Part shown: positions 44,995-57,884 of the stretch, in pieces
How the letters are laid out: every line of letters starts with the position of its first letter
How positions within the stretch are numbered: position 1 is the first letter of the stretch
Assembly (NCBI RefSeq): GCF_019636075.1
Contig: NZ_JAHBYG010000012.1
Span: forward strand, 1 to 64,000
Length of the DNA: 64,000 nt
Direction of reading: 5' to 3'
DNA from: Ferrovibrio sp.
Lineage (GTDB): Bacteria > Pseudomonadota > Alphaproteobacteria > Ferrovibrionales > Ferrovibrionaceae
Position numbers and translations under genes: made by a program
The notes under the pieces: model-generated
The model's database searches: none
Seen by the model: only the letters and a program-made list of their open reading frames with translations
What the model was told of the DNA's origin: nothing

Positions 44995-46248
44995 TCAGTT
45001 GCGCCGCCGCATGCCGGCCGGCATCTCCGGCAGCCGGCAATCGGTCAGATCGGCGCCATCCAGCAAAGCGCGGGCAAGGTCGGCCTCGTCCATCACCGCA
45101 TTCTTCAGCAACGCGCCGCGCAGGTCGGCCGAACGCAGCAGGCTGCGGCTGAGATTGACCGGAAAATAGCGCCCGCCGCCCATGGTGAGCGGACCGAGAT
45201 TGGCATCGCGCAGATCGGCCCGCACCAGATGCGCCCCGGAAAGATTGGCGCCACGCAGATCGGCACCCATCAGGTTGGCATCGCGCAGATCGGCATCCAT
45301 CAGCTTGGCGCCCTGCATCATGGCGCGCTCGAGATTGAGGCCCTGCAATACCGAGCCGCGCAGATTGGCGCCGGTGAGGATCACGCCCTGACGCGGGCCG
45401 ATGCCGCGCAGATCCAGTTCGCTGAAATCGAACAGCCTGCCCTGCTGGCCGCCCGTGCCAACCCAGGCGGCATAAAGTTTCAGGGCTTCATCGATGGAAA
45501 CCCCCAGATCGCTGATCGGCCGGCCCTTCTGGCGGTCATCCAGCACGCCCTGCACATCAGCGCCCGCCATCATTGCGTTTTCCAGCTTGGCGCCCACCAT
45601 AACGGCGCCGCGCAAGGTGGCATCCTTCAGGTTGGCACCAGACAGGTCCGCGCCGGACAGATTGGCGCCTTCCAGCCGCGCCGCCGCCAGATTGGCGCGC
45701 GTAAGCACGCAATTGACCATGATCGCATCGGTGAAATCGGTGCGCCCGGCACTCACGCCAGACAGATCGGCGCCGGTCAGATCGGCTGCTGCCATTTTTG
45801 CGCCGCCCAAATCCACCGGATCGTGGTCGGGCTTCTTGATATGCACATTGCCGTATTTGTCGCGTTCGGCCACCACGCCATCGCGCATGTCGGCATCCAG
45901 CAGCCGCGCGCCGGTCAGGTCGGCGCCGCGCAAAGAGGCGCCGCGCAAATCGGCCCGGTCCAGCCGCGCGCCCTGCAGATTGGCGCCGCGCAGGTCGCAG
46001 GCATACAGCACAGCCTGGCTCAGATTGGTCTCGGCCAGATTGGCGCCCTGCATCTTGCAGCCGGTAAAATCTGCGCCGGCCAAGTCAGCCCCAGCCATGG
46101 TCAGATTGGACAGATCGCGGAATTGGAAAATGGTACGACGCCCGCCAGAGAGCCTCTGGCGGTATTTCTCATGATCGGCAATGGCAGCCAGCAACTCGCC
46201 GTACCCAACCTTGGGACGCTGCCGATTATCCTTACGCCCAGCCGACAC
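44995..46248 (-). CDS. Pentapeptide-repeat protein
   Basis: The 417-residue product is largely A(D/N)LXX pentapeptide repeats, folding as a right-handed square beta helix. Tracts run at about residues 55-125, 150-225 and 285-400 (MQGANLAETNLSQAVLYACD and similar). Two segments interrupt them: a short charged insert (ERDKYGNVHIKKPDHDP) and a longer one of about 60 residues (DDRQKGRPISDLGVSIDEAL onward). No signal peptide is convincing. I chose GTG 46248 with GGGGGA before it over ATG 46305, whose extra residues are not protein-like. Function unknown; some relatives protect gyrase, but nothing here shows that. Confidence 0.85.
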   Translation of the reverse strand: MSAGRKDNRQRPKVGYGELLAAIADHEKYRQRLSGGRRTIFQFRDLSNLTMAGADLAGADFTGCKMQGANLAETNLSQAVLYACDLRGANLQGARLDRADLRGASLRGADLTGARLLDADMRDGVVAERDKYGNVHIKKPDHDPVDLGGAKMAAADLTGADLSGVSAGRTDFTDAIMVNCVLTRANLAAARLEGANLSGADLSGANLKDATLRGAVMVGAKLENAMMAGADVQGVLDDRQKGRPISDLGVSIDEALKLYAAWVGTGGQQGRLFDFSELDLRGIGPRQGVILTGANLRGSVLQGLNLERAMMQGAKLMDADLRDANLMGADLRGANLSGAHLVRADLRDANLGPLTMGGGRYFPVNLSRSLLRSADLRGALLKNAVMDEADLARALLDGADLTDCRLPEMPAGMRRRN

Positions 46249-46519
46249 CCAACATCCCCCGAAAAAGCAAAAAGCCCCCGGAAATCCAATGCATGGCAAA
46301 ACCACGCTTTACCGATTCAGGATTTACGGGCGGACAGTACCGCTCTCATGCAGCACCTGCAACAACAAACAATTAGCCGACAATAACGTGCATATTGCAT
46401 ATTTTTACGCGTATTAAATTGTGGTAACTCTGCGAGACGTTCTTAGATTCAACGCTTTAAAAGTGTATGATTGCATGCATATCATGCCTCCGGCTTAAAC
46501 CAAGCCCTTGGAGAGCATC
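46249..46519 (+). promoter_or_regulatory. AT-rich upstream region of the chemoreceptor
   Basis: The 271 bp between two divergent genes are AT-rich from 46370 on, with TTGGAGAGC (ribosome site) before ATG 46520. I see no unmistakable sigma-70 or flagellar sigma promoter; a TATTAAATT stretch at 46413-46421 might serve as a -10. The palindromic GCATGC near 46474 has no known meaning here. Confidence 0.3.
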
Positions 46520-48427
46520 ATGCAGAAATCTACTTTTTCTGACAAATATGCGGTTCTCATAAGCCTAGCACTGGGCGCAATCGCATTATTGCTCTTCTCT
46601 CCCGTTCTGCAGGGCGGCAATCCAGGATGGCGCGAAGGTCTGTTCATACTCTGCGTGCTCGGTGCTGCCGGGCTTGGTTTGAAGCTGATGCGCGGCGCTG
46701 CTGCATCTGACGAATCGGCAGCGGCGGATAAACAAACCGCCCAGGCCAGGTTGGTGCAGTTGGAGGCCGCGCTGGCCAATCTGGATGCCAATGTGATGAT
46801 GGCCGATAACGATGGCAAGATCATCCTGGTGAACCATGCGATCCACCGCATGTTCAAGGAAGCGCAGAGCGACTTGCGGCGTTGGCTGCCGGATTTCGAC
46901 GCCGACAAACTGCTGGGCGAAAATTTCGACCGCTTCCACAAAGACCGCAATCACCAGCGCAACCTGATCGGCAATCTCACCGGCAGCCATCGCGGCCGCG
47001 CCGAAACCGCCGGCCGGGTATTCGATGTGGTGGCCAATCCGCTTTTCGATGCCGCCGGCAAACGCATGGGCGTGGTGATCGAATGGCAGGACATGACCGA
47101 GCGCCTGCGTATCGAGCGCGAAGTGATGCAGGCCATCACGGATTCCTTCGAGAGCGGCCTGGCCAAGCCGATCGATCTTGCCGGTAAAACCGGTTTCGTG
47201 AAGACTCTATCCGAAACCATCAATGCCAGCGCCGATCAGGTGCTGCATATGGTGGCGGATATTTCCGGCAGCCTGGATGCACTGGCCAAGGGCGACCTCA
47301 CCCGTAAACTGGACAAGCAATATCCCGGCGTGTTCGACACGCTGGCGCGCAACACCAACAGCGTTACCGAACAGATCGGCGATGTGGTGCGCAAGCTTTC
47401 GGACCTGTCGGGCACCGTGCGCGAAGCCGCCGATGAAATCTCCATGGGCAGTCAGGATCTGGCGCAACGTACCGAATCCCAGGCTGCCAATCTGGAACAG
47501 ACTGCCGCTTCCATGCATCAGGTCACCACCACGGTGAAACAGAATGCCGAGAATGCCCAGGCGGCCAATCAGTTCACCGCCAATGCGCGCGACATCGCCG
47601 AAAAAGGCGGCGCCGTCACCACAGAAGCCGTATCGGCGATGAGCGAGATCGAAGGCAGCGCGCAGAAGATCGGAGATATCGTCGGGTTGATCGACGAGAT
47701 CGCCTTCCAGACCAACCTGCTGGCCCTGAATGCCAGCGTGGAAGCCGCACGCGCCGGCGAAGCCGGCAAGGGTTTTGCCGTGGTGGCGCAGGAAGTGCGT
47801 GCGCTGGCGCAGCGCTCGGCCAATGCCTCGAAGGACATCAAGGCGCTGATCCAGGCCTCCAACAGCCAGGTACGCAAAGGCGTGCAATTGGTCAATCAGG
47901 CCGGCTCCACGCTCGGCGAGATCGTCGCAGCCATCAAGAAAGTGGCCGACATCGTGGGCGATATCGCCGCCGCCAGCCGCGAACAATCGCAAGGCCTGGA
48001 GGATGTGAACCGCGCCGTCGGCAGCATGGACGAGATGACCCAACGCAACGGCGCCCTGGTGGAAGAAACCACGGCCTCGGCACAAAGCCTGGCCGGCCAG
48101 GCCCAGGCGCTGGCCGGCATGGTGGCCTATTTCAAGCTGGGCGACGAAGCCACGCGCAAACCGGCTGCCAGCCCCGTATCCAGGCCTGCGCCCTCGCCCA
48201 ATCCGGTTGCCACACCGGCGCCGCACAAGGCCGTACCCGGCACCACAATGCATACAAAACCGCCTGCCGCCCGGCCCAGCCCGGCCAAACCGGCAGCACA
48301 ACCTGCCATGGCGCCTGCGGCACCGAAGCCTGCGCCGCGACCAGTGGCCAGCCCGGCCCCACGCCCAGTGGCCAGCACAGCCCCACGCCCAGTGGTCAGC
48401 GACGACGACGATTGGAAGGAATTCTGA
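46520..48427 (+). CDS. PAS-domain methyl-accepting chemotaxis protein with CheR-docking tail
   Basis: A 635-residue chemoreceptor. Two membrane helices near the N-terminus are separated by a loop of only about 10 residues, so there is no periplasmic ligand domain. A PAS domain (about residues 75-200, [20 protein letters not shown]) follows, a HAMP-like segment, then the MCP signalling hairpin with [21 protein letters not shown] Pro/Ala-rich linker of about 90 residues ends in DDDDWKEF, which fits the WxxF pentapeptide that tethers CheR. Sensing is therefore probably cytoplasmic, e.g. redox or a small metabolite (inference). Confidence 0.93.
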
Positions 48428-52712: not shown

Positions 52713-52894
52713 GGTCGAACTCCTGGTTATCATCACGCGGGGTTCCGGTTCCTGGTTTGCCAGCGGTTGGTTTGGCTGGCGGTACCGGTCTGCCTGCGCA
52801 CAGTCTTTATCGCCGGCAATCGCGGCGGCCATGGGGTGCAAAAGCGGAAAGGCCGAGGTATTCTCGCGGCGAAATCAAGGCGGACCAGAGTAGC

Positions 52895-53401
52895 ATGGCA
52901 AAGAAACAAACAGCCGGGCGCAAAAGCATCGCCCCTATCACCCCTGGATATGCTGTTGGGTTAACCCAGTTGGGCAAACCTGTTGCGGCCCCCACCAGCC
53001 CGGAAACCGCCGTGCTGGAAACCGTGCCCAACCCGCATCCCGGCAAGCTTTACGCGATCCGCTTCGTGCAGCCGGAATTCACCAGCCTCTGCCCGCTGAC
53101 CGGCCAGCCGGACTTCGCTCATCTCTGCATAGATTACGTGCCCAACCGGCGCATCGTGGAGAGCAAGTCGCTCAAGCTTTTCCTGGCCAGCTTCCGCAAC
53201 CATGGTGCCTTCCACGAGGATTGCACGATCGGCATCGCCGAACGCCTGGTGCAGGCGATGAAGCCGCGCTGGCTGCGCATCGGCGGCTATTGGTATCCGC
53301 GTGGCGGCATGCCGATCGATGTGTTCTGGCAGACCGGAAAGATGCCGGCCGGCCTTTGGCTGCCCGATCAGGGTGTGGCCTCCTATCGTGGCCGTGGCTA
53401 G
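52895..53401 (+). CDS. queF: NADPH-dependent 7-cyano-7-deazaguanine reductase
   Basis: A 168-residue type I (short, YkvM-like) QueF, which reduces preQ0 to preQ1 for queuosine in tRNA. The catalytic Cys is in [14 protein letters not shown]; the NADPH motif region is [20 protein letters not shown] and the Asp/His follow. It begins at ATG 52895, although an in-frame ORF begins at 52757 in the divergent promoter region. The last residues overlap the following lipoprotein gene. Confidence 0.95.
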
Positions 53402-54125
53402 GCGCGCATACGCCTTCATCGCCCTGTTGCTTCTGACCGGCTGCGGCGGGTTGGAAGATAATCTGCGCGACATCAATCGCAGTCTCTATCGCGGCATGGG
53501 CGGCAAGGCCGATGCAAGGATATCCGCGCCAGGCACCGGCGCCGTTCTGGCCAGTTGCTTCAACCCCGATACCGGCACGCTCTATCCCAGCCAGACCGGC
53601 CGCTGCGCCCCAGGCTATACGGCAATTCCGTTTTCCGAAGCCGAGCAACGCTTCATGGCATCACAGGAACCGCCGCCGCCTGCGCAGCCACAGCAACGGG
53701 TTGCCCGCGCCACATTGCCCGCCGAACCGCAGCAGCAACAGCCGCCGGCCTATCTGCGCCAGGAAGGCCAGGCGCTATGCTACGACGATGCCAGGCAGCA
53801 GATTTTCGGCGCCGATCATTGCCCGCCCGGCAGCCGCTGGATAGATACGCCCGAGGCCGAGGCACTGCAGCGCGCCGCCCTTGAGCAAGCCATGTGGTGT
53901 TACTATCCCTCGCGCCGCCTGCTCTATCGCAGCCGCGCCTGCCGCCCCGGTGATCGCGCCCTGCCGCTGGCCGAAGCCGAAACCCTCTGGGCGCAGTTGC
54001 CCGCCGCAAACAAACCGCGCCAGCGCCCGGGCGACAGCCAGCGCAACCTGGCCCCGGTGCCGCAGGTGCAATCCGCACCGCGCGGCAGCATCGACGCCAC
54101 GCCGCTGCCGGCGCCTAATCGCTAA
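53388..54125 (+). CDS. Lipoprotein with three Cys-pair repeats
   Basis: Not a recognised family. The 245-residue product has a lipoprotein signal ([10 protein letters not shown], lipidated Cys 19). Three repeats follow, each with two cysteines 14-16 residues apart and a C-x-P-G turn: Cys 57-73 (CAPG), 131-145 (CPPG) and 171-185 (CRPG), each ending with a SEAEQ, PEAEA or AEAET stretch. Disulphide pairs are likely. A Gln/Pro-rich linker separates the first from the others. It starts with GTG 53388 (or 53394), overlapping the end of queF by up to 14 bp, so it is translationally coupled. Confidence 0.7.
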
Positions 54126-54180
54126 TTATCTATACAGAAGTAATTTGCAAAGATTCTAACTTTTACAATCATAATTGACA

Positions 54181-54864
54181 TTAAGCGATAGCCTGTTCGT
54201 TTGGCTCTTTGCGTTCAATATAAGGCAACTTTACAAGTAACCACAGGAAGGATGTCAGGGCAGAAAGCACAACCACACTCCAGCTAATTGCCCAATGGAA
54301 TGATGGGTGCATGGCTACGTCATAGAGTACAGCAATCTGGATACCGAACATAAAAATAAGAATCATACGCATAATTACAATCAAGGTTTTTCTTACTATT
54401 ACCCCTCGCATCTGTATTCCAAAAGGCTGCTCTTTTCCCAAGCTATCGAAATGGATTGGTGTGTAATCGCCTAAACTATCGAGATAGCGCATATCTAGCG
54501 CTTGCAGCGCATGAGCTTTTAAAAGCGGCGATGGAAGATCCTCATATTTATCCAATCGTAACTGAATGCGCGATTTCAACATTTCTCTCATGACCATCAG
54601 GTCATTAAATAAGAGGCACCCAGTAAAACTGCCTGCAGTGTGAAGGAATAATAATAACTCCTTTAGCTTATCGACTTCTATATGCACTCCTTGAAACGAT
54701 ATATCTGGTTTCACGCCAAATGCCACGAGCGCAAGTAAAAGCAAAAGCACAACATTGCTAGCTATGATCTTATTTGTAGCAGCACGCTTTTCATCTCTAC
54801 GTTTCGCTAGAACTTCAAAATATGGATCATCAAAAATGCTAGGAAGTAGATTCTTCTCATACAT
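54181..54864 (-). CDS. Uncharacterised membrane protein in an AT-rich islet
   Basis: A 227-residue protein not recognised. Two hydrophobic parts: ASNVVLLLLLALVAFGV near residue 35 with LLLFLHTAGSFTGCLLF near residue 75, and a C-terminal pair (KTLIVIMRMILIFMFGIQIA, SVVVLSALTSFLWLL). In between is a charged, Leu-rich region. The DNA is far more AT-rich than its neighbours (sample lines of 60 bp count 31 and 21 G+C), with different codon use, so it may be acquired. ATG 54864 is preferred to TTG 54900; no clear ribosome site is seen. Confidence 0.6.
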   Translation of the reverse strand: MYEKNLLPSIFDDPYFEVLAKRRDEKRAATNKIIASNVVLLLLLALVAFGVKPDISFQGVHIEVDKLKELLLFLHTAGSFTGCLLFNDLMVMREMLKSRIQLRLDKYEDLPSPLLKAHALQALDMRYLDSLGDYTPIHFDSLGKEQPFGIQMRGVIVRKTLIVIMRMILIFMFGIQIAVLYDVAMHPSFHWAISWSVVVLSALTSFLWLLVKLPYIERKEPNEQAIA

Positions 54865-55058
54865 GCCGAGAATGGAAGAATAATGGATTTTCACCCACAA
54901 AGACGGGGCAAAAAAATAAATTTAGAAAGGAAACCCCTAATACTCATTTATATGAACCTCAGCGTTTAGCGTTACGCTTTTCGGCAATTTAAATTAGCCT
55001 TTCTCCATACGCTCGAAGGTAGTGATAAAAAGTCTTACCGTCACTAAAGAACGCTCTA
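54865..55058. other. AT-rich non-coding spacer after rluC
   Basis: The 194 bp between rluC and the islet gene are AT-rich. The inverted repeat AGCGTTACGCT lies at 54968-54978. A short reading frame on the minus strand ends in HYLRAYGERLI but is otherwise a shadow of rluC. I see no functional RNA or terminator with certainty. Confidence 0.3.
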
Positions 55059-56105
55059 TCATTCCAGCCATTCATCGGCTTCGGCATCGATCTCCAGCCC
55101 CAGCAGATCCCAGCTAGCCTGCATATGGGGTGGCAACGGCGCCTTGGCCTGCAGGATGCCGCCATCGGGATGCTCCAGCCGCAAGGCCCGGGCATGCAGA
55201 TGCAGCTTGCGGCTGATGCTGCCGGTAAGCTGGTTTTCGCTATCGCCGTATTTGCCGTCGCCGGCAATCGGCGTGCCCAGCGCGGCGGCATGCACGCGCA
55301 GCTGATGGGTGCGGCCGGTGATCGGCGCCATGCCCAGCCAGGCGGCACGCCGGCCGGCGGTGGCAATCACCCGATACAGCGTGATGGCGGATTTGCCGGC
55401 TTCGGGGTCGCCGGTCATGCGCTCGCCCAGAATGCCCGGCAGCTTGGCCAGCGGCATGTCGATCTTGCCCTCGCGCGGCGTGGGCACGCCCACCGTGAGC
55501 GCCCAGTATAGCTTATGCGCCTCACGCTTGCGCAGAGCGGCCGCCAGCTTGGCCGCAGCCGAGGCGGTGCGCGCCAGCACCAATACGCCAGAGGTATCTT
55601 TGTCCAGCCGGTGCACCAGGCGCGGCCGCTCGGTGGAACCGAAGCGCAGATAATCCAGCAGGCCGTCCAGATGCTCGGAAATGCCGGTGCCGCCTTGGGT
55701 GGCCAGGCCCGGCGGCTTGTTCAACACGATCACCGCATCATCCTTATGCAGCACAGCGGCCTGCAATTCGGCGATACGCTGCGGATCGGCCTTGGGGGCG
55801 CGCGGCTTGTCGTCATCCTTCGGTGCTTCGCCCAACGGCGGAATCCGGATGCTTTGGCCAGCCTCTAGCCGCGTGGCCGCCTTGGCGCGGCCGCCATCGA
55901 CACGCACCTGCCCGGTGCGCAGCAGCTTTTCCAGCTTGCCATGGCCAAGCCAGGGATAATGCCGCTTGAACCAACGATCCAAGCGGATATCGGCCTCGTC
56001 GGCGGCAATGATGCGGGTGGTTATGGTGTTTTTTTCAGCCGCCGGCTGGTGCGCCGGCTTTTGCTCAGGCTTTTGCCCGGGGTTTTGATCTGCGTCTAGC
56101 GCCAT
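55059..56105 (-). CDS. 23S rRNA/tRNA pseudouridine synthase, RluC/RluD family
   Basis: A 348-residue enzyme: an S4 RNA-binding domain (DEADIRLDRWFKRHYPWLGH, near residue 35), then the synthase domain with catalytic Asp in VHRLDKDTSGVLVLAR, plus VLNKPPGLATQGGTGISEHL and ITGRTHQLRVHAAALGTPIA. I chose ATG 56105, which overlaps the preceding gene's stop by 10 bp; an earlier in-frame ATG at 56252 gives an Ala/Gly-rich shadow. RluC (positions 955, 2504, 2580) or RluD activity is not distinguishable by sequence. The first 25 residues are low-complexity. Confidence 0.9.
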   Translation of the reverse strand: MALDADQNPGQKPEQKPAHQPAAEKNTITTRIIAADEADIRLDRWFKRHYPWLGHGKLEKLLRTGQVRVDGGRAKAATRLEAGQSIRIPPLGEAPKDDDKPRAPKADPQRIAELQAAVLHKDDAVIVLNKPPGLATQGGTGISEHLDGLLDYLRFGSTERPRLVHRLDKDTSGVLVLARTASAAAKLAAALRKREAHKLYWALTVGVPTPREGKIDMPLAKLPGILGERMTGDPEAGKSAITLYRVIATAGRRAAWLGMAPITGRTHQLRVHAAALGTPIAGDGKYGDSENQLTGSISRKLHLHARALRLEHPDGGILQAKAPLPPHMQASWDLLGLEIDAEADEWLE

Positions 56106-56497
56106 ACGCGGCGCACGCGGTCCGGCTCCTGCTGCGGCTCCGGCTGCTGCGCCGCCGGCTCTACCGGTTTTGGCACGGCCAGAGCCTTTCGCTCCAGCCA
56201 TTCCAGCCGCGCCTGTTCGTGTCCTTCGATCGACTGTACTTCGAGTTCGCATTCCTGGGCGGCCTGGAAAAGGATTTGCTTGTTCAGATTCTTGTAACGA
56301 CCGATTTTCTCATAAAAACAGTCGTCACGCGAGGGCACCTTGCCCGGCGTATAAAACGGCTTCTCTGCTTCGGAAACGATTTCCAGACCCATATATCCGG
56401 CCAGGCCGAGCAACGCCATTACCCCGGCGAAAATTATGCCGAGGCGACCAAGCGAACTACGCTGGCTATTATCTACGGGTGGCGAACGTGACGGCAT
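56096..56497 (-). CDS. Uncharacterised single-span membrane protein
   Basis: The 133-residue product has one N-terminal membrane helix (LGIIFAGVMALLGLAGYMGL near residue 19) and a periplasmic region with two cysteines (DDCFYEKIGRYKNLNKQI and AAQECELEVQSIEGHEQA) followed by a Pro/Gln-rich tail ending RVRRVWR. Not recognised. ATG 56497 is preceded by GGATAAGG; GTG 56506 is possible. It stands where crcB usually lies, between rarA and rluC, and overlaps rluC by 10 bp. Confidence 0.7.
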   Translation of the reverse strand: MPSRSPPVDNSQRSSLGRLGIIFAGVMALLGLAGYMGLEIVSEAEKPFYTPGKVPSRDDCFYEKIGRYKNLNKQILFQAAQECELEVQSIEGHEQARLEWLERKALAVPKPVEPAAQQPEPQQEPDRVRRVWR

Positions 56498-56567
56498 GGC
56501 AGGCACCTTATCCGGTGCGGGGTTAACATATTATTTAGGAAGCCGGGCTGGCTTATTCCAGACAACT

Positions 56568-57884
56568 TCAGGGGCTTTCGGCCTGTTTCTTTTCCCTAAG
56601 TTTTTGCCAGTATTCCAATCTTTTTATAACTTCACGTTCAAAGCCCCGCTCTTTCGGCTTGTAAAATTGCCGGCGATCCATGGCATCGGGGAAATAATTC
56701 TGCCCGGAAAACCCCTCGGCAGTATCGTGGTCATAGGCATAGCCGTCGCTATAGCCAAGATTTTTCATCAGCTTGGTGGGTGCATTGAGGATATGCATGG
56801 GTGGCATCAGCGAGCCCTGCTCGCGCGCCGCACGCTTGGCACCCTTCTCGGCCATATAGACCGCATTGGATTTCGGCGCGGTGGCCATATAAACCACCGC
56901 CTGCATCAGACCGATCTCGCCTTCCGGGCTGCCCAGGAAATCGTAGAGTTCCTTCGCCGCCATGGCCTGCAACAGCGCATTGGGATCGGCCATGCCGATA
57001 TCCTCGACAGCAAAGCGCGCGACCCGGCGCATGATGTAAAGCGGATCCTCGCCGCCAACCAGCATGCGAGCCAGCCAATACAAGGCGGCATCGCAATCCG
57101 AACCGCGCATGGATTTATGCAGCGCGCTGATCAGATTGTAATGCTCTTCCTGGCCCTTGTCGTAAAGCGGCGCACGGCGTTGCAGCAGATTGGCCAGCCT
57201 GGCCGGATCGAGCTGGCCCTCGGGCTGCAACTCGAAAACCTGCTCGGCCATGTTCAGCAGATAACGGCCATCGCCATCGGCCATGGCACGCAGCGCGGCG
57301 CGCGCCTCGGGCGTCAATGCCAATGGCCGTTCCCGCACGGCTTCGGCCTTGGCCAGCAGGCTTTCCAATGCCGCATCATCCAGCCGGTGCAGCACCAGCA
57401 CGCTGGCGCGCGACAACAAGGCACCGTTCAGCGCGAAGCTGGGATTCTCGGTGGTGGCCCCAACCAGCACCACGGTGCCATCTTCCACATAGGGCAGGAA
57501 ACCATCCTGCTGGGCGCGGTTGAAACGATGGATCTCGTCTACGAAAAGCAAAGTGCGTTGGCCCTGTTCGCGCCGCGCCCGTGCCGCCTCGAAAGCCTTG
57601 CGCAGATCGGCCACCCCCGAAAACACCGCCGATAGCGGCGCGAAATACATATTGGTGGCTTCGGCAAGCAAACGGGCGATAGAGGTTTTTCCGGTGCCGG
57701 GCGGACCCCACAGGATCAGGCTGGCCAGCTTCTTGGCGGCCACCATGCGGGCCAGCGGCGCATCATTGGCCAGCAGATGATCCTGGCCGATCACGTCTTC
57801 CAGCTTTTTCGGACGCAATTGTTCGGCCAGCGGCACGTCGCCCTGATTGGCAAACAGCGACGGGCCGGATTCTGGCGCGGCCAT
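56568..57884 (-). CDS. rarA: Replication-associated recombination protein A (MgsA/RarA)
   Basis: A 438-residue AAA+ ATPase that acts at stalled replication forks. Walker A is WGPPGTGKTSIARLLAEA, Walker B is TLLFVDEIHRFNRAQQDGFL, and TTENPSFALNGALLSRASV is the sensor-1 region; AKELYDFLGSPEGEIGLMQA is typical of the C-terminal tetramerisation part. It begins 16 bp after degQ, an arrangement found across alphaproteobacteria. Confidence 0.96.
   Translation of the reverse strand: MAAPESGPSLFANQGDVPLAEQLRPKKLEDVIGQDHLLANDAPLARMVAAKKLASLILWGPPGTGKTSIARLLAEATNMYFAPLSAVFSGVADLRKAFEAARARREQGQRTLLFVDEIHRFNRAQQDGFLPYVEDGTVVLVGATTENPSFALNGALLSRASVLVLHRLDDAALESLLAKAEAVRERPLALTPEARAALRAMADGDGRYLLNMAEQVFELQPEGQLDPARLANLLQRRAPLYDKGQEEHYNLISALHKSMRGSDCDAALYWLARMLVGGEDPLYIMRRVARFAVEDIGMADPNALLQAMAAKELYDFLGSPEGEIGLMQAVVYMATAPKSNAVYMAEKGAKRAAREQGSLMPPMHILNAPTKLMKNLGYSDGYAYDHDTAEGFSGQNYFPDAMDRRQFYKPKERGFEREVIKRLEYWQKLREKKQAESP

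What the first reader, a model, noticed from the sequence alone, without database searches (positions are those of the whole stretch)
54126..55058. AT-rich islet with one orphan membrane protein inside a conserved gene neighbourhood
The HAD-rluC order usual in alphaproteobacteria is broken by several genes, one of which has strongly lower GC (two 60-bp lines counted 31 and 21 G+C) and foreign codon use. The protein has two pairs of hydrophobic stretches around a charged middle, like some 2TM effector proteins, but I could not name a family. It may be acquired; a defence or toxin-like role is only a guess.
Basis: partly seen in the sequence, partly recalled or inferred. Interest (0 to 1): 0.5.

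Follow-up and report, generated by a model that had tools for sequence, protein, structure and literature searches.

The report
Foreign membrane gene in variable spot
A short AT-rich stretch of this bacterial chromosome looks like foreign DNA carrying one unknown membrane-protein gene; close relatives carry other acquired genes at the same spot, two of them resembling anti-virus genes, so a role in virus defence is plausible but unproven.

Summary
Window 54126-55058 (933 bp) is 39.3% GC against 62.7% for the window, changing abruptly at the stop codons of both flanking genes. It carries one real-looking gene, 54181-54864 minus, 227 aa, with foreign codon use. No family matched in Pfam, PHROGs, NCBIfam, PADLOC or PDB sequences, and no relative was found in the collections searched. 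The genome is taken to be a Ferrovibrio by kinship to named MAGs. All nine congeners held lack the gene. There the interval holds isochorismatase (9 of 9), LysR (8 of 9) and DUF3422 (8 of 9), and the LysR/DUF3422 junction is variable: 7 of 10 genomes, the window included, carry cargo, each different. Two cargos are anti-phage-like: a DUF262+HEPN pair resembling PD-T4-2, and a DUF2971 gene. In the window the islet stands in place of the whole resident block. Acquisition is well supported (about 0.9). A defence role by action at the membrane rests on location and topology alone (about 0.4). The structure model was poor and fold searches uninformative.

The parts
54126..55058 (.). AT-rich islet, 39.3% GC, from the stop codon of the lipoprotein-like gene to the stop codon of the rluC-like gene; stands where congeners have 3-4 resident genes
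   Evidence: GC; comparison with 9 congeners
54181..54864 (-). Orphan gene, 227 aa from ATG at 54864 (or 239 aa from TTG at 54900; start uncertain, no clear ribosome-binding site seen by eye). Predicted inner-membrane protein, 3 clear and 1 borderline TM stretch, both ends and a roughly 65-residue middle in the cytoplasm by the positive-inside rule (inference)
   Evidence: no family
54865..55058 (-). 194-bp AT-rich leader upstream of the orphan gene; no Rfam match; the consensus scan put no promoter-like site in it
53400..54125 (+). Left flank: lipoprotein-like gene, found in 10 of 21 genomes searched, the 10 of the window's genus
52757..53401 (+). QueF-type nitrile reductase gene (start uncertain), next to the lipoprotein-like gene in 9 of 9 congeners
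55059..56252 (-). Right flank: rluC-like pseudouridine synthase gene, intact to its stop codon (true start probably nearer 56030, inferred from relatives)

Best explanation
The islet is horizontally acquired cargo at a small accessory-gene hotspot of the window's genus (taken to be Ferrovibrio). The spot is the junction of the convergent LysR and DUF3422 genes between the lipoprotein-like gene and rluC. Recombination between the conserved flanks probably swapped an AT-rich one-gene cassette in and removed the resident genes (inferred). The gene makes an inner-membrane protein of about four TM helices with a cytoplasmic middle. I propose that it protects the cell against phage or other mobile DNA by acting at the membrane: either blocking DNA entry (superinfection exclusion) or disturbing the membrane on infection (abortive infection). 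Shown: foreign composition, absence from relatives, turnover at the spot. Inferred: replacement of resident genes, recombination route, topology. Guess supported by location and topology only: defence. My figures: acquired hotspot cargo 0.9; defence role 0.4.
For: Abrupt GC change at both stop codons and foreign codon use. Gene found in 0 of 95 relatives beside the window's own genome. The same interval in 9 of 9 congeners holds other genes; 7 of 10 genomes, the window included, have cargo and 3 (G005, G006, G008) have LysR and DUF3422 abutting. The six congener cargos do not match each other, apart from one 35-residue stretch shared by G001 and G002, and the window protein matches none of those proteins. 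G003 and G009, with identical rluC proteins and 98% identical DUF3422, differ in cargo, and so do the sister pair G004 and G007. G004's cargo is DUF262 (PF03235, E 1.4e-28) plus HEPN (PF18737, PF18735); the first gene matches PADLOC NsnA and PD-T4-2_A. G002's is DUF2971, matching PADLOC PDC-S31. PD-T4-2 is reported to hold DUF262 and HEPN domains and to be native anti-T4 defence (passages of PMC10952713 and PMC9519451). Control junctions QueF-lipoprotein and rluC-136aa gene are unbroken in 9 of 9 congeners.
Against: No defence or phage family match for the protein itself (PADLOC none; PHROGs best E 0.091). No relatives, so no evidence of selection or of a recurrent neighbourhood. Other cargo is not plainly defence-like: SDR plus HxlR in G003 (the HxlR protein's weak PADLOC hit, Csa3 E 0.0052, is probably a shared helix-turn-helix), and unassigned ORFs in G001, G007, G009. 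The second protein of G004's pair had no PADLOC match. No tRNA in the window and no direct repeat flanking the islet. Expression is unknown.
Confidence: 0.4

Rival explanations
1. Acquired cargo without a defence role: a small transporter, stress or envelope membrane protein, or a selfish or neutral ORFan passing through the hotspot.
For: Hotspot cargo is mixed (SDR/HxlR in G003, unassigned membrane proteins in G007 and G009). No defence family match.
Against: Of the 3 congeners whose cargo could be named (G002, G003, G004), 2 hold anti-phage-like genes. A lone gene without partner enzymes fits no pathway seen here.
Confidence: 0.42
2. A gene of phage or satellite origin (moron-type membrane protein, e.g. 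superinfection exclusion) left behind by a decayed prophage.
For: AT-rich orphan membrane proteins are common among phage accessory genes (recalled). PHROGs match to a moron-category membrane protein at E 0.58, not significant.
Against: No tblastn match in 50,697 phage records; none confirmed in IMG/VR by the pattern scan, which finds close relatives only. None of the 7 neighbour proteins scanned against Pfam is a phage family; no direct repeat flanks the islet. The rest of the window was not scanned for phage genes.
Confidence: 0.12
3. Artefact: assembly error or contamination joining foreign DNA into the contig, or a non-coding AT-rich spacer with a chance ORF.
For: Reads cannot be checked; the genome is in 85 contigs (98.65% complete, 0.34% contamination).
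Against: Both edges fall at the stop codons of intact flanking genes, unlikely for a misjoin; the frame is longer than in all of 1000 random sequences and encodes hydrophobic stretches with flanking positive charge.
Confidence: 0.06

Closest known systems
Accessory or defence gene hotspots (e.g. E. coli P2 prophage and ICE-like hotspots, passages of PMC9519451)
   Same: Conserved flanking genes, different cargo per genome, many hypothetical genes, some anti-phage genes
   Different: No prophage or ICE seen at the locus; small chromosomal spot between convergent genes; defence activity tested for none of the cargo in this genus as far as I saw
PD-T4-2 (DUF262 plus HEPN; resembled by the cargo of congener G004 in the same interval)
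   Same: Position in the same chromosomal interval as the window's gene
   Different: Unrelated protein; the window gene matches neither DUF262 nor HEPN
Small multi-TM membrane effectors of bacterial conflict systems (SLATT, S-4TM, Pycsar TM effectors; names and features recalled)
   Same: Approximate size, TM pairs, charged cytoplasmic middle
   Different: No Pfam match to any such model at E up to 1; no cyclase or other partner gene in the islet

Membership tests
Accessory-gene hotspot | Same core junction occupied by different unrelated cargo in different genomes | tested here: met
   7 of 10 genomes of the genus with cargo, 3 empty; two nearby control junctions unbroken in 9 of 9 congeners. 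In the window, G001 and G002 resident genes are missing as well, so there the cargo is not a clean insertion
Accessory-gene hotspot | Cargo gained recently and of foreign composition | tested here: met
   Islet 39.3% GC, CAI-like 0.28; absent from all 9 congeners. Other cargo ranges from 31-46% GC (G004) to 58-64% (G003)
Integrative element or genomic island proper | Integrase or recombinase, tRNA site, flanking direct repeats | tested here: not met
   No second ORF of 60 aa or more lies wholly in the islet, no tRNA in the window, no flanking direct repeat of 11 nt or more. The rest of the window was not scanned for integrases
Known anti-phage system (PADLOC-DB) | Match to a PADLOC model | tested here: not met
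   0 families at E up to 1
Known anti-phage system | Protects cells against phage | not testable with these tools
   Needs a plaque assay
SLATT / S-4TM type membrane effector (names recalled) | Match to the family profile | tested here: not met
   Pfam scan gives only BCDHK_Adom3 at E 0.072, below its cut-off
SLATT / S-4TM type membrane effector (names recalled) | Fold of TM bundle with cytoplasmic helices | tested here: inconclusive
   AlphaFold model mean pLDDT 53.6, pTM 0.28; no Foldseek match at E 0.001 in PDB or BFVD

The most novel reading that the evidence does not exclude
The gene is the founding member of an undescribed one-gene, membrane-acting phage-defence family, lodged in a Ferrovibrio defence hotspot that also trades a PD-T4-2-like pair and a DUF2971 gene; no report of this hotspot was seen in the listings.
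Probability: 0.25. Interest if true: 0.5.

Novelty: new member of a known kind. Interest (0 to 1): 0.33.

Why it matters
It gives a defined chromosomal spot, with empty and occupied states within one small genus, whose unassigned cargo (this gene and the membrane proteins of G007 and G009) can be tested directly for anti-phage activity. It also shows an ORFan standing in place of resident genes, among them a DUF3422 gene kept in 8 of 10 genomes of the genus. Otherwise it is an ordinary case of accessory-gene turnover.

Tried and rejected
Homology: Pfam, PHROGs, PADLOC, NCBIfam, PDB sequences, plasmids and phages by tblastn and by blastn of the islet, GTDB and IMG/VR pattern scans (six exact 8-residue peptides, so close relatives only; 17 and 9 stretches matched a pattern, none confirmed), and the genome search on 96 relatives, 385 of the class, 398 of the phylum and 18 of the order, own genome counted in each (the sets overlap). 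Two weak hits, G162 (E 0.0025) and G539 (E 0.00094, each for one genome), lie in ORFs that read as sigma-54-type response regulators (identified by eye) and were rejected as chance.

Structure: one single-sequence AlphaFold job, too poor to use; Foldseek gave 4 PDB and 53 BFVD matches at E up to 10, none at E 0.001.

Have the missing genes moved? DUF3422 has no match in the window genome, while the same query finds it in 8 of 9 congeners, not in G002, and in 0 of 4 genomes outside the genus. For isochorismatase and LysR the own genome has matches only 48% and 35% identical to the G003 proteins, less than the 59-98% and 48-98% of the congeners' copies at the locus (34). The histidine phosphatase was not searched for in the own genome.

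Rival that the window lineage never had these genes: an rluC tree puts the window with G003, G004, G007 and G009 (95/96), apart from the other five, and isochorismatase is in 9 of 9 congeners, so loss is simpler. Against this, DUF3422 is absent from the 4 outside genomes, so it was gained within or near the base of the genus; the tree is of one gene, midpoint-rooted, with two long outgroups that the program warned about.

Repeats: one search found no direct repeat flanking the islet, only one 16-nt pair inside it (81%). It found two inverted pairs with one arm in each flanking gene: 23 nt at 74% (54083-54105 and 55202-55224) and 11 nt perfect (53970-53980 and 55075-55085). Both lie in GC-rich coding sequence and are taken as chance; not tested.

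Kinship of cargo: the window protein has no match to the other cargo proteins beyond chance-level BLAST hits (E 1.2 and above). The G009 membrane protein gave no match in 385 class genomes (G009 itself cannot have been in that sample, so there was no positive control) nor in plasmids, the G007 one none in plasmids. Six cargo proteins had no NCBIfam match. No Rfam match at 53900-55300 (65). ORFs in relatives come from a simple script; starts are uncertain, the two short G001 ORFs may not be genes, and its long ORFs that run across known genes in the wrong frame (L037 among them) were dropped in favour of the tblastn map.

Literature: listings only; passages read in PMC9519451 and PMC10952713. 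No whole paper was read.

Full report
What was checked. The reported islet at 54126-55058 is real. GC is 0.37-0.42 in the 300-bp windows that lie wholly in it, against 0.61-0.70 in the kilobase on either side; over its 933 bp it is 39.3%, against a window mean of 62.7% with sd 3.5 for windows of that size. The edges are sharp and fall at the stop codons of the two flanking genes, the lipoprotein-like gene on the left (ends 54125) and the rluC-like gene on the right (ends 55059). One gene fills most of it: 54181-54864 on the minus strand, 227 aa from the ATG at 54864. Upstream in-frame starts exist and no clear ribosome-binding site was seen, so the start is uncertain. The frame is longer than in any of 1000 random sequences of like composition, GC by codon position is 0.52/0.30/0.40, and codon use is unlike that of six neighbour genes.

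The protein. Three hydrophobic stretches pass the threshold used and a fourth, residues about 70-86, is borderline. Positive charges lie at 21-32, 93-103, 153-159 and 212-219, which by the positive-inside rule puts both ends and the middle of about 65 residues in the cytoplasm (inference). No family model matched: Pfam (one sub-threshold hit, E 0.072), PHROGs (best E 0.091), PADLOC (none), NCBIfam (none), PDB sequences (none at E 10). tblastn in plasmids and phages was empty. In genomes only the window's own copy was found, apart from two chance-level hits. The structure model was poor (mean pLDDT 53.6, pTM 0.28) and fold searches returned nothing at E 0.001.

The place. Nine relatives, G001-G009, are of the same genus. 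All nine keep QueF, the lipoprotein-like gene and the rluC-like gene, and 8 of 9 show rarA (the G004 contig begins too late). In 3 of them (G005, G006, G008) the interval holds isochorismatase, LysR and DUF3422, with LysR and DUF3422 convergent and abutting: the empty state. G003, G004, G007 and G009 also have a histidine-phosphatase-like gene beside the lipoprotein-like gene. Between LysR and DUF3422, G003 has an SDR and an HxlR gene (named by eye), G004 a DUF262 gene with a HEPN gene in DNA of 31-46% GC, G007 a 251-aa protein with two hydrophobic stretches, and G009 a 275-aa membrane protein. G001 has two short ORFs and no LysR match; G002 a DUF2971 gene and no DUF3422. With the window that makes 7 of 10 genomes with cargo. 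The congener cargos do not match each other by tblastn, save a 35-residue match of a G001 short ORF in G002. The junctions QueF-lipoprotein and rluC-136aa gene carry no insert in 9 of 9.

Replacement. In the window nothing remains of isochorismatase, DUF3422 or histidine phosphatase at the locus, nor of LysR apart from one weak match (E 3e-6, 33% over 88 residues) at 56641-56901, inside rarA, which I take as chance. DUF3422 is absent from the window genome and from G002, present in the other 8 of the genus, and absent from the 4 genomes outside it that were searched. An rluC tree groups the window with G003/G004/G007/G009 at 95/96, so loss of resident genes is simpler than their primary absence, though not proven. 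The route is not shown. With no tRNA in the window, no flanking direct repeat and no second gene in the islet, homologous recombination in the shared flanks is the most likely one (inference).

Function. Two of the congeners' cargos are anti-phage-like. In G004 the first protein matches PADLOC NsnA (E 2.2e-67) and PD-T4-2_A (E 1.4e-39), and more weakly REase_II and SspE; the second is a HEPN by Pfam but had no PADLOC match. G002's DUF2971 protein matches PADLOC PDC-S31 (E 2.2e-19). PD-T4-2 is described as containing DUF262 and HEPN domains (PMC10952713, passages), and deleting it from its native strain raised T4 plaquing (PMC9519451, passages). Location thus favours defence, and a multi-TM protein encoded alone would most simply act at the membrane, by exclusion or abortive infection. 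Against this, the other cargos are not defence-like or not assignable, and the protein has no known kin. I give 0.9 to acquired hotspot cargo and 0.4 to a defence role.

Novelty. Accessory and defence hotspots with hypothetical genes are well known (PMC9519451, passages). This is a new instance, with an orphan gene that remains to be tested. Interest is modest.

Noticed in passing
L036:2937-4635 (G004): DUF262 (GmrSD_N) plus HEPN gene pair in 31-46% GC DNA, resembling the anti-phage system PD-T4-2/NsnA, in the same chromosomal interval as the window's islet.
   Followed up: yes
L034:3613-4596 (G002): DUF2971 gene matching PADLOC candidate PDC-S31 lies where DUF3422 stands in other congeners; DUF3422 has no match in this genome.
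   Followed up: partly
L039:3451-4206 (G007) and L041:4041-4868 (G009): Two further unassigned membrane proteins in the same interval, without a sequence match to the window gene or to each other's locus.
   Followed up: partly
L036:4718-5567 (G004): The LysR gene next to the DUF262/HEPN cargo matches in two overlapping pieces in different frames, as if frameshifted or misread.
   Followed up: no
window 53400-54125: Lipoprotein-like gene found in 10 of 21 genomes searched, the 10 of the window's genus, with several invariant cysteines; function unknown.
   Followed up: no
window 46001-47183: Second-lowest GC region of the window (about 0.54 over 933 bp).
   Followed up: no
window 56250-56850: Mild GC dip (0.51-0.53) around the 136-aa gene and the 3' end of rarA; both genes are conserved in congeners, so probably not foreign.
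   Followed up: no
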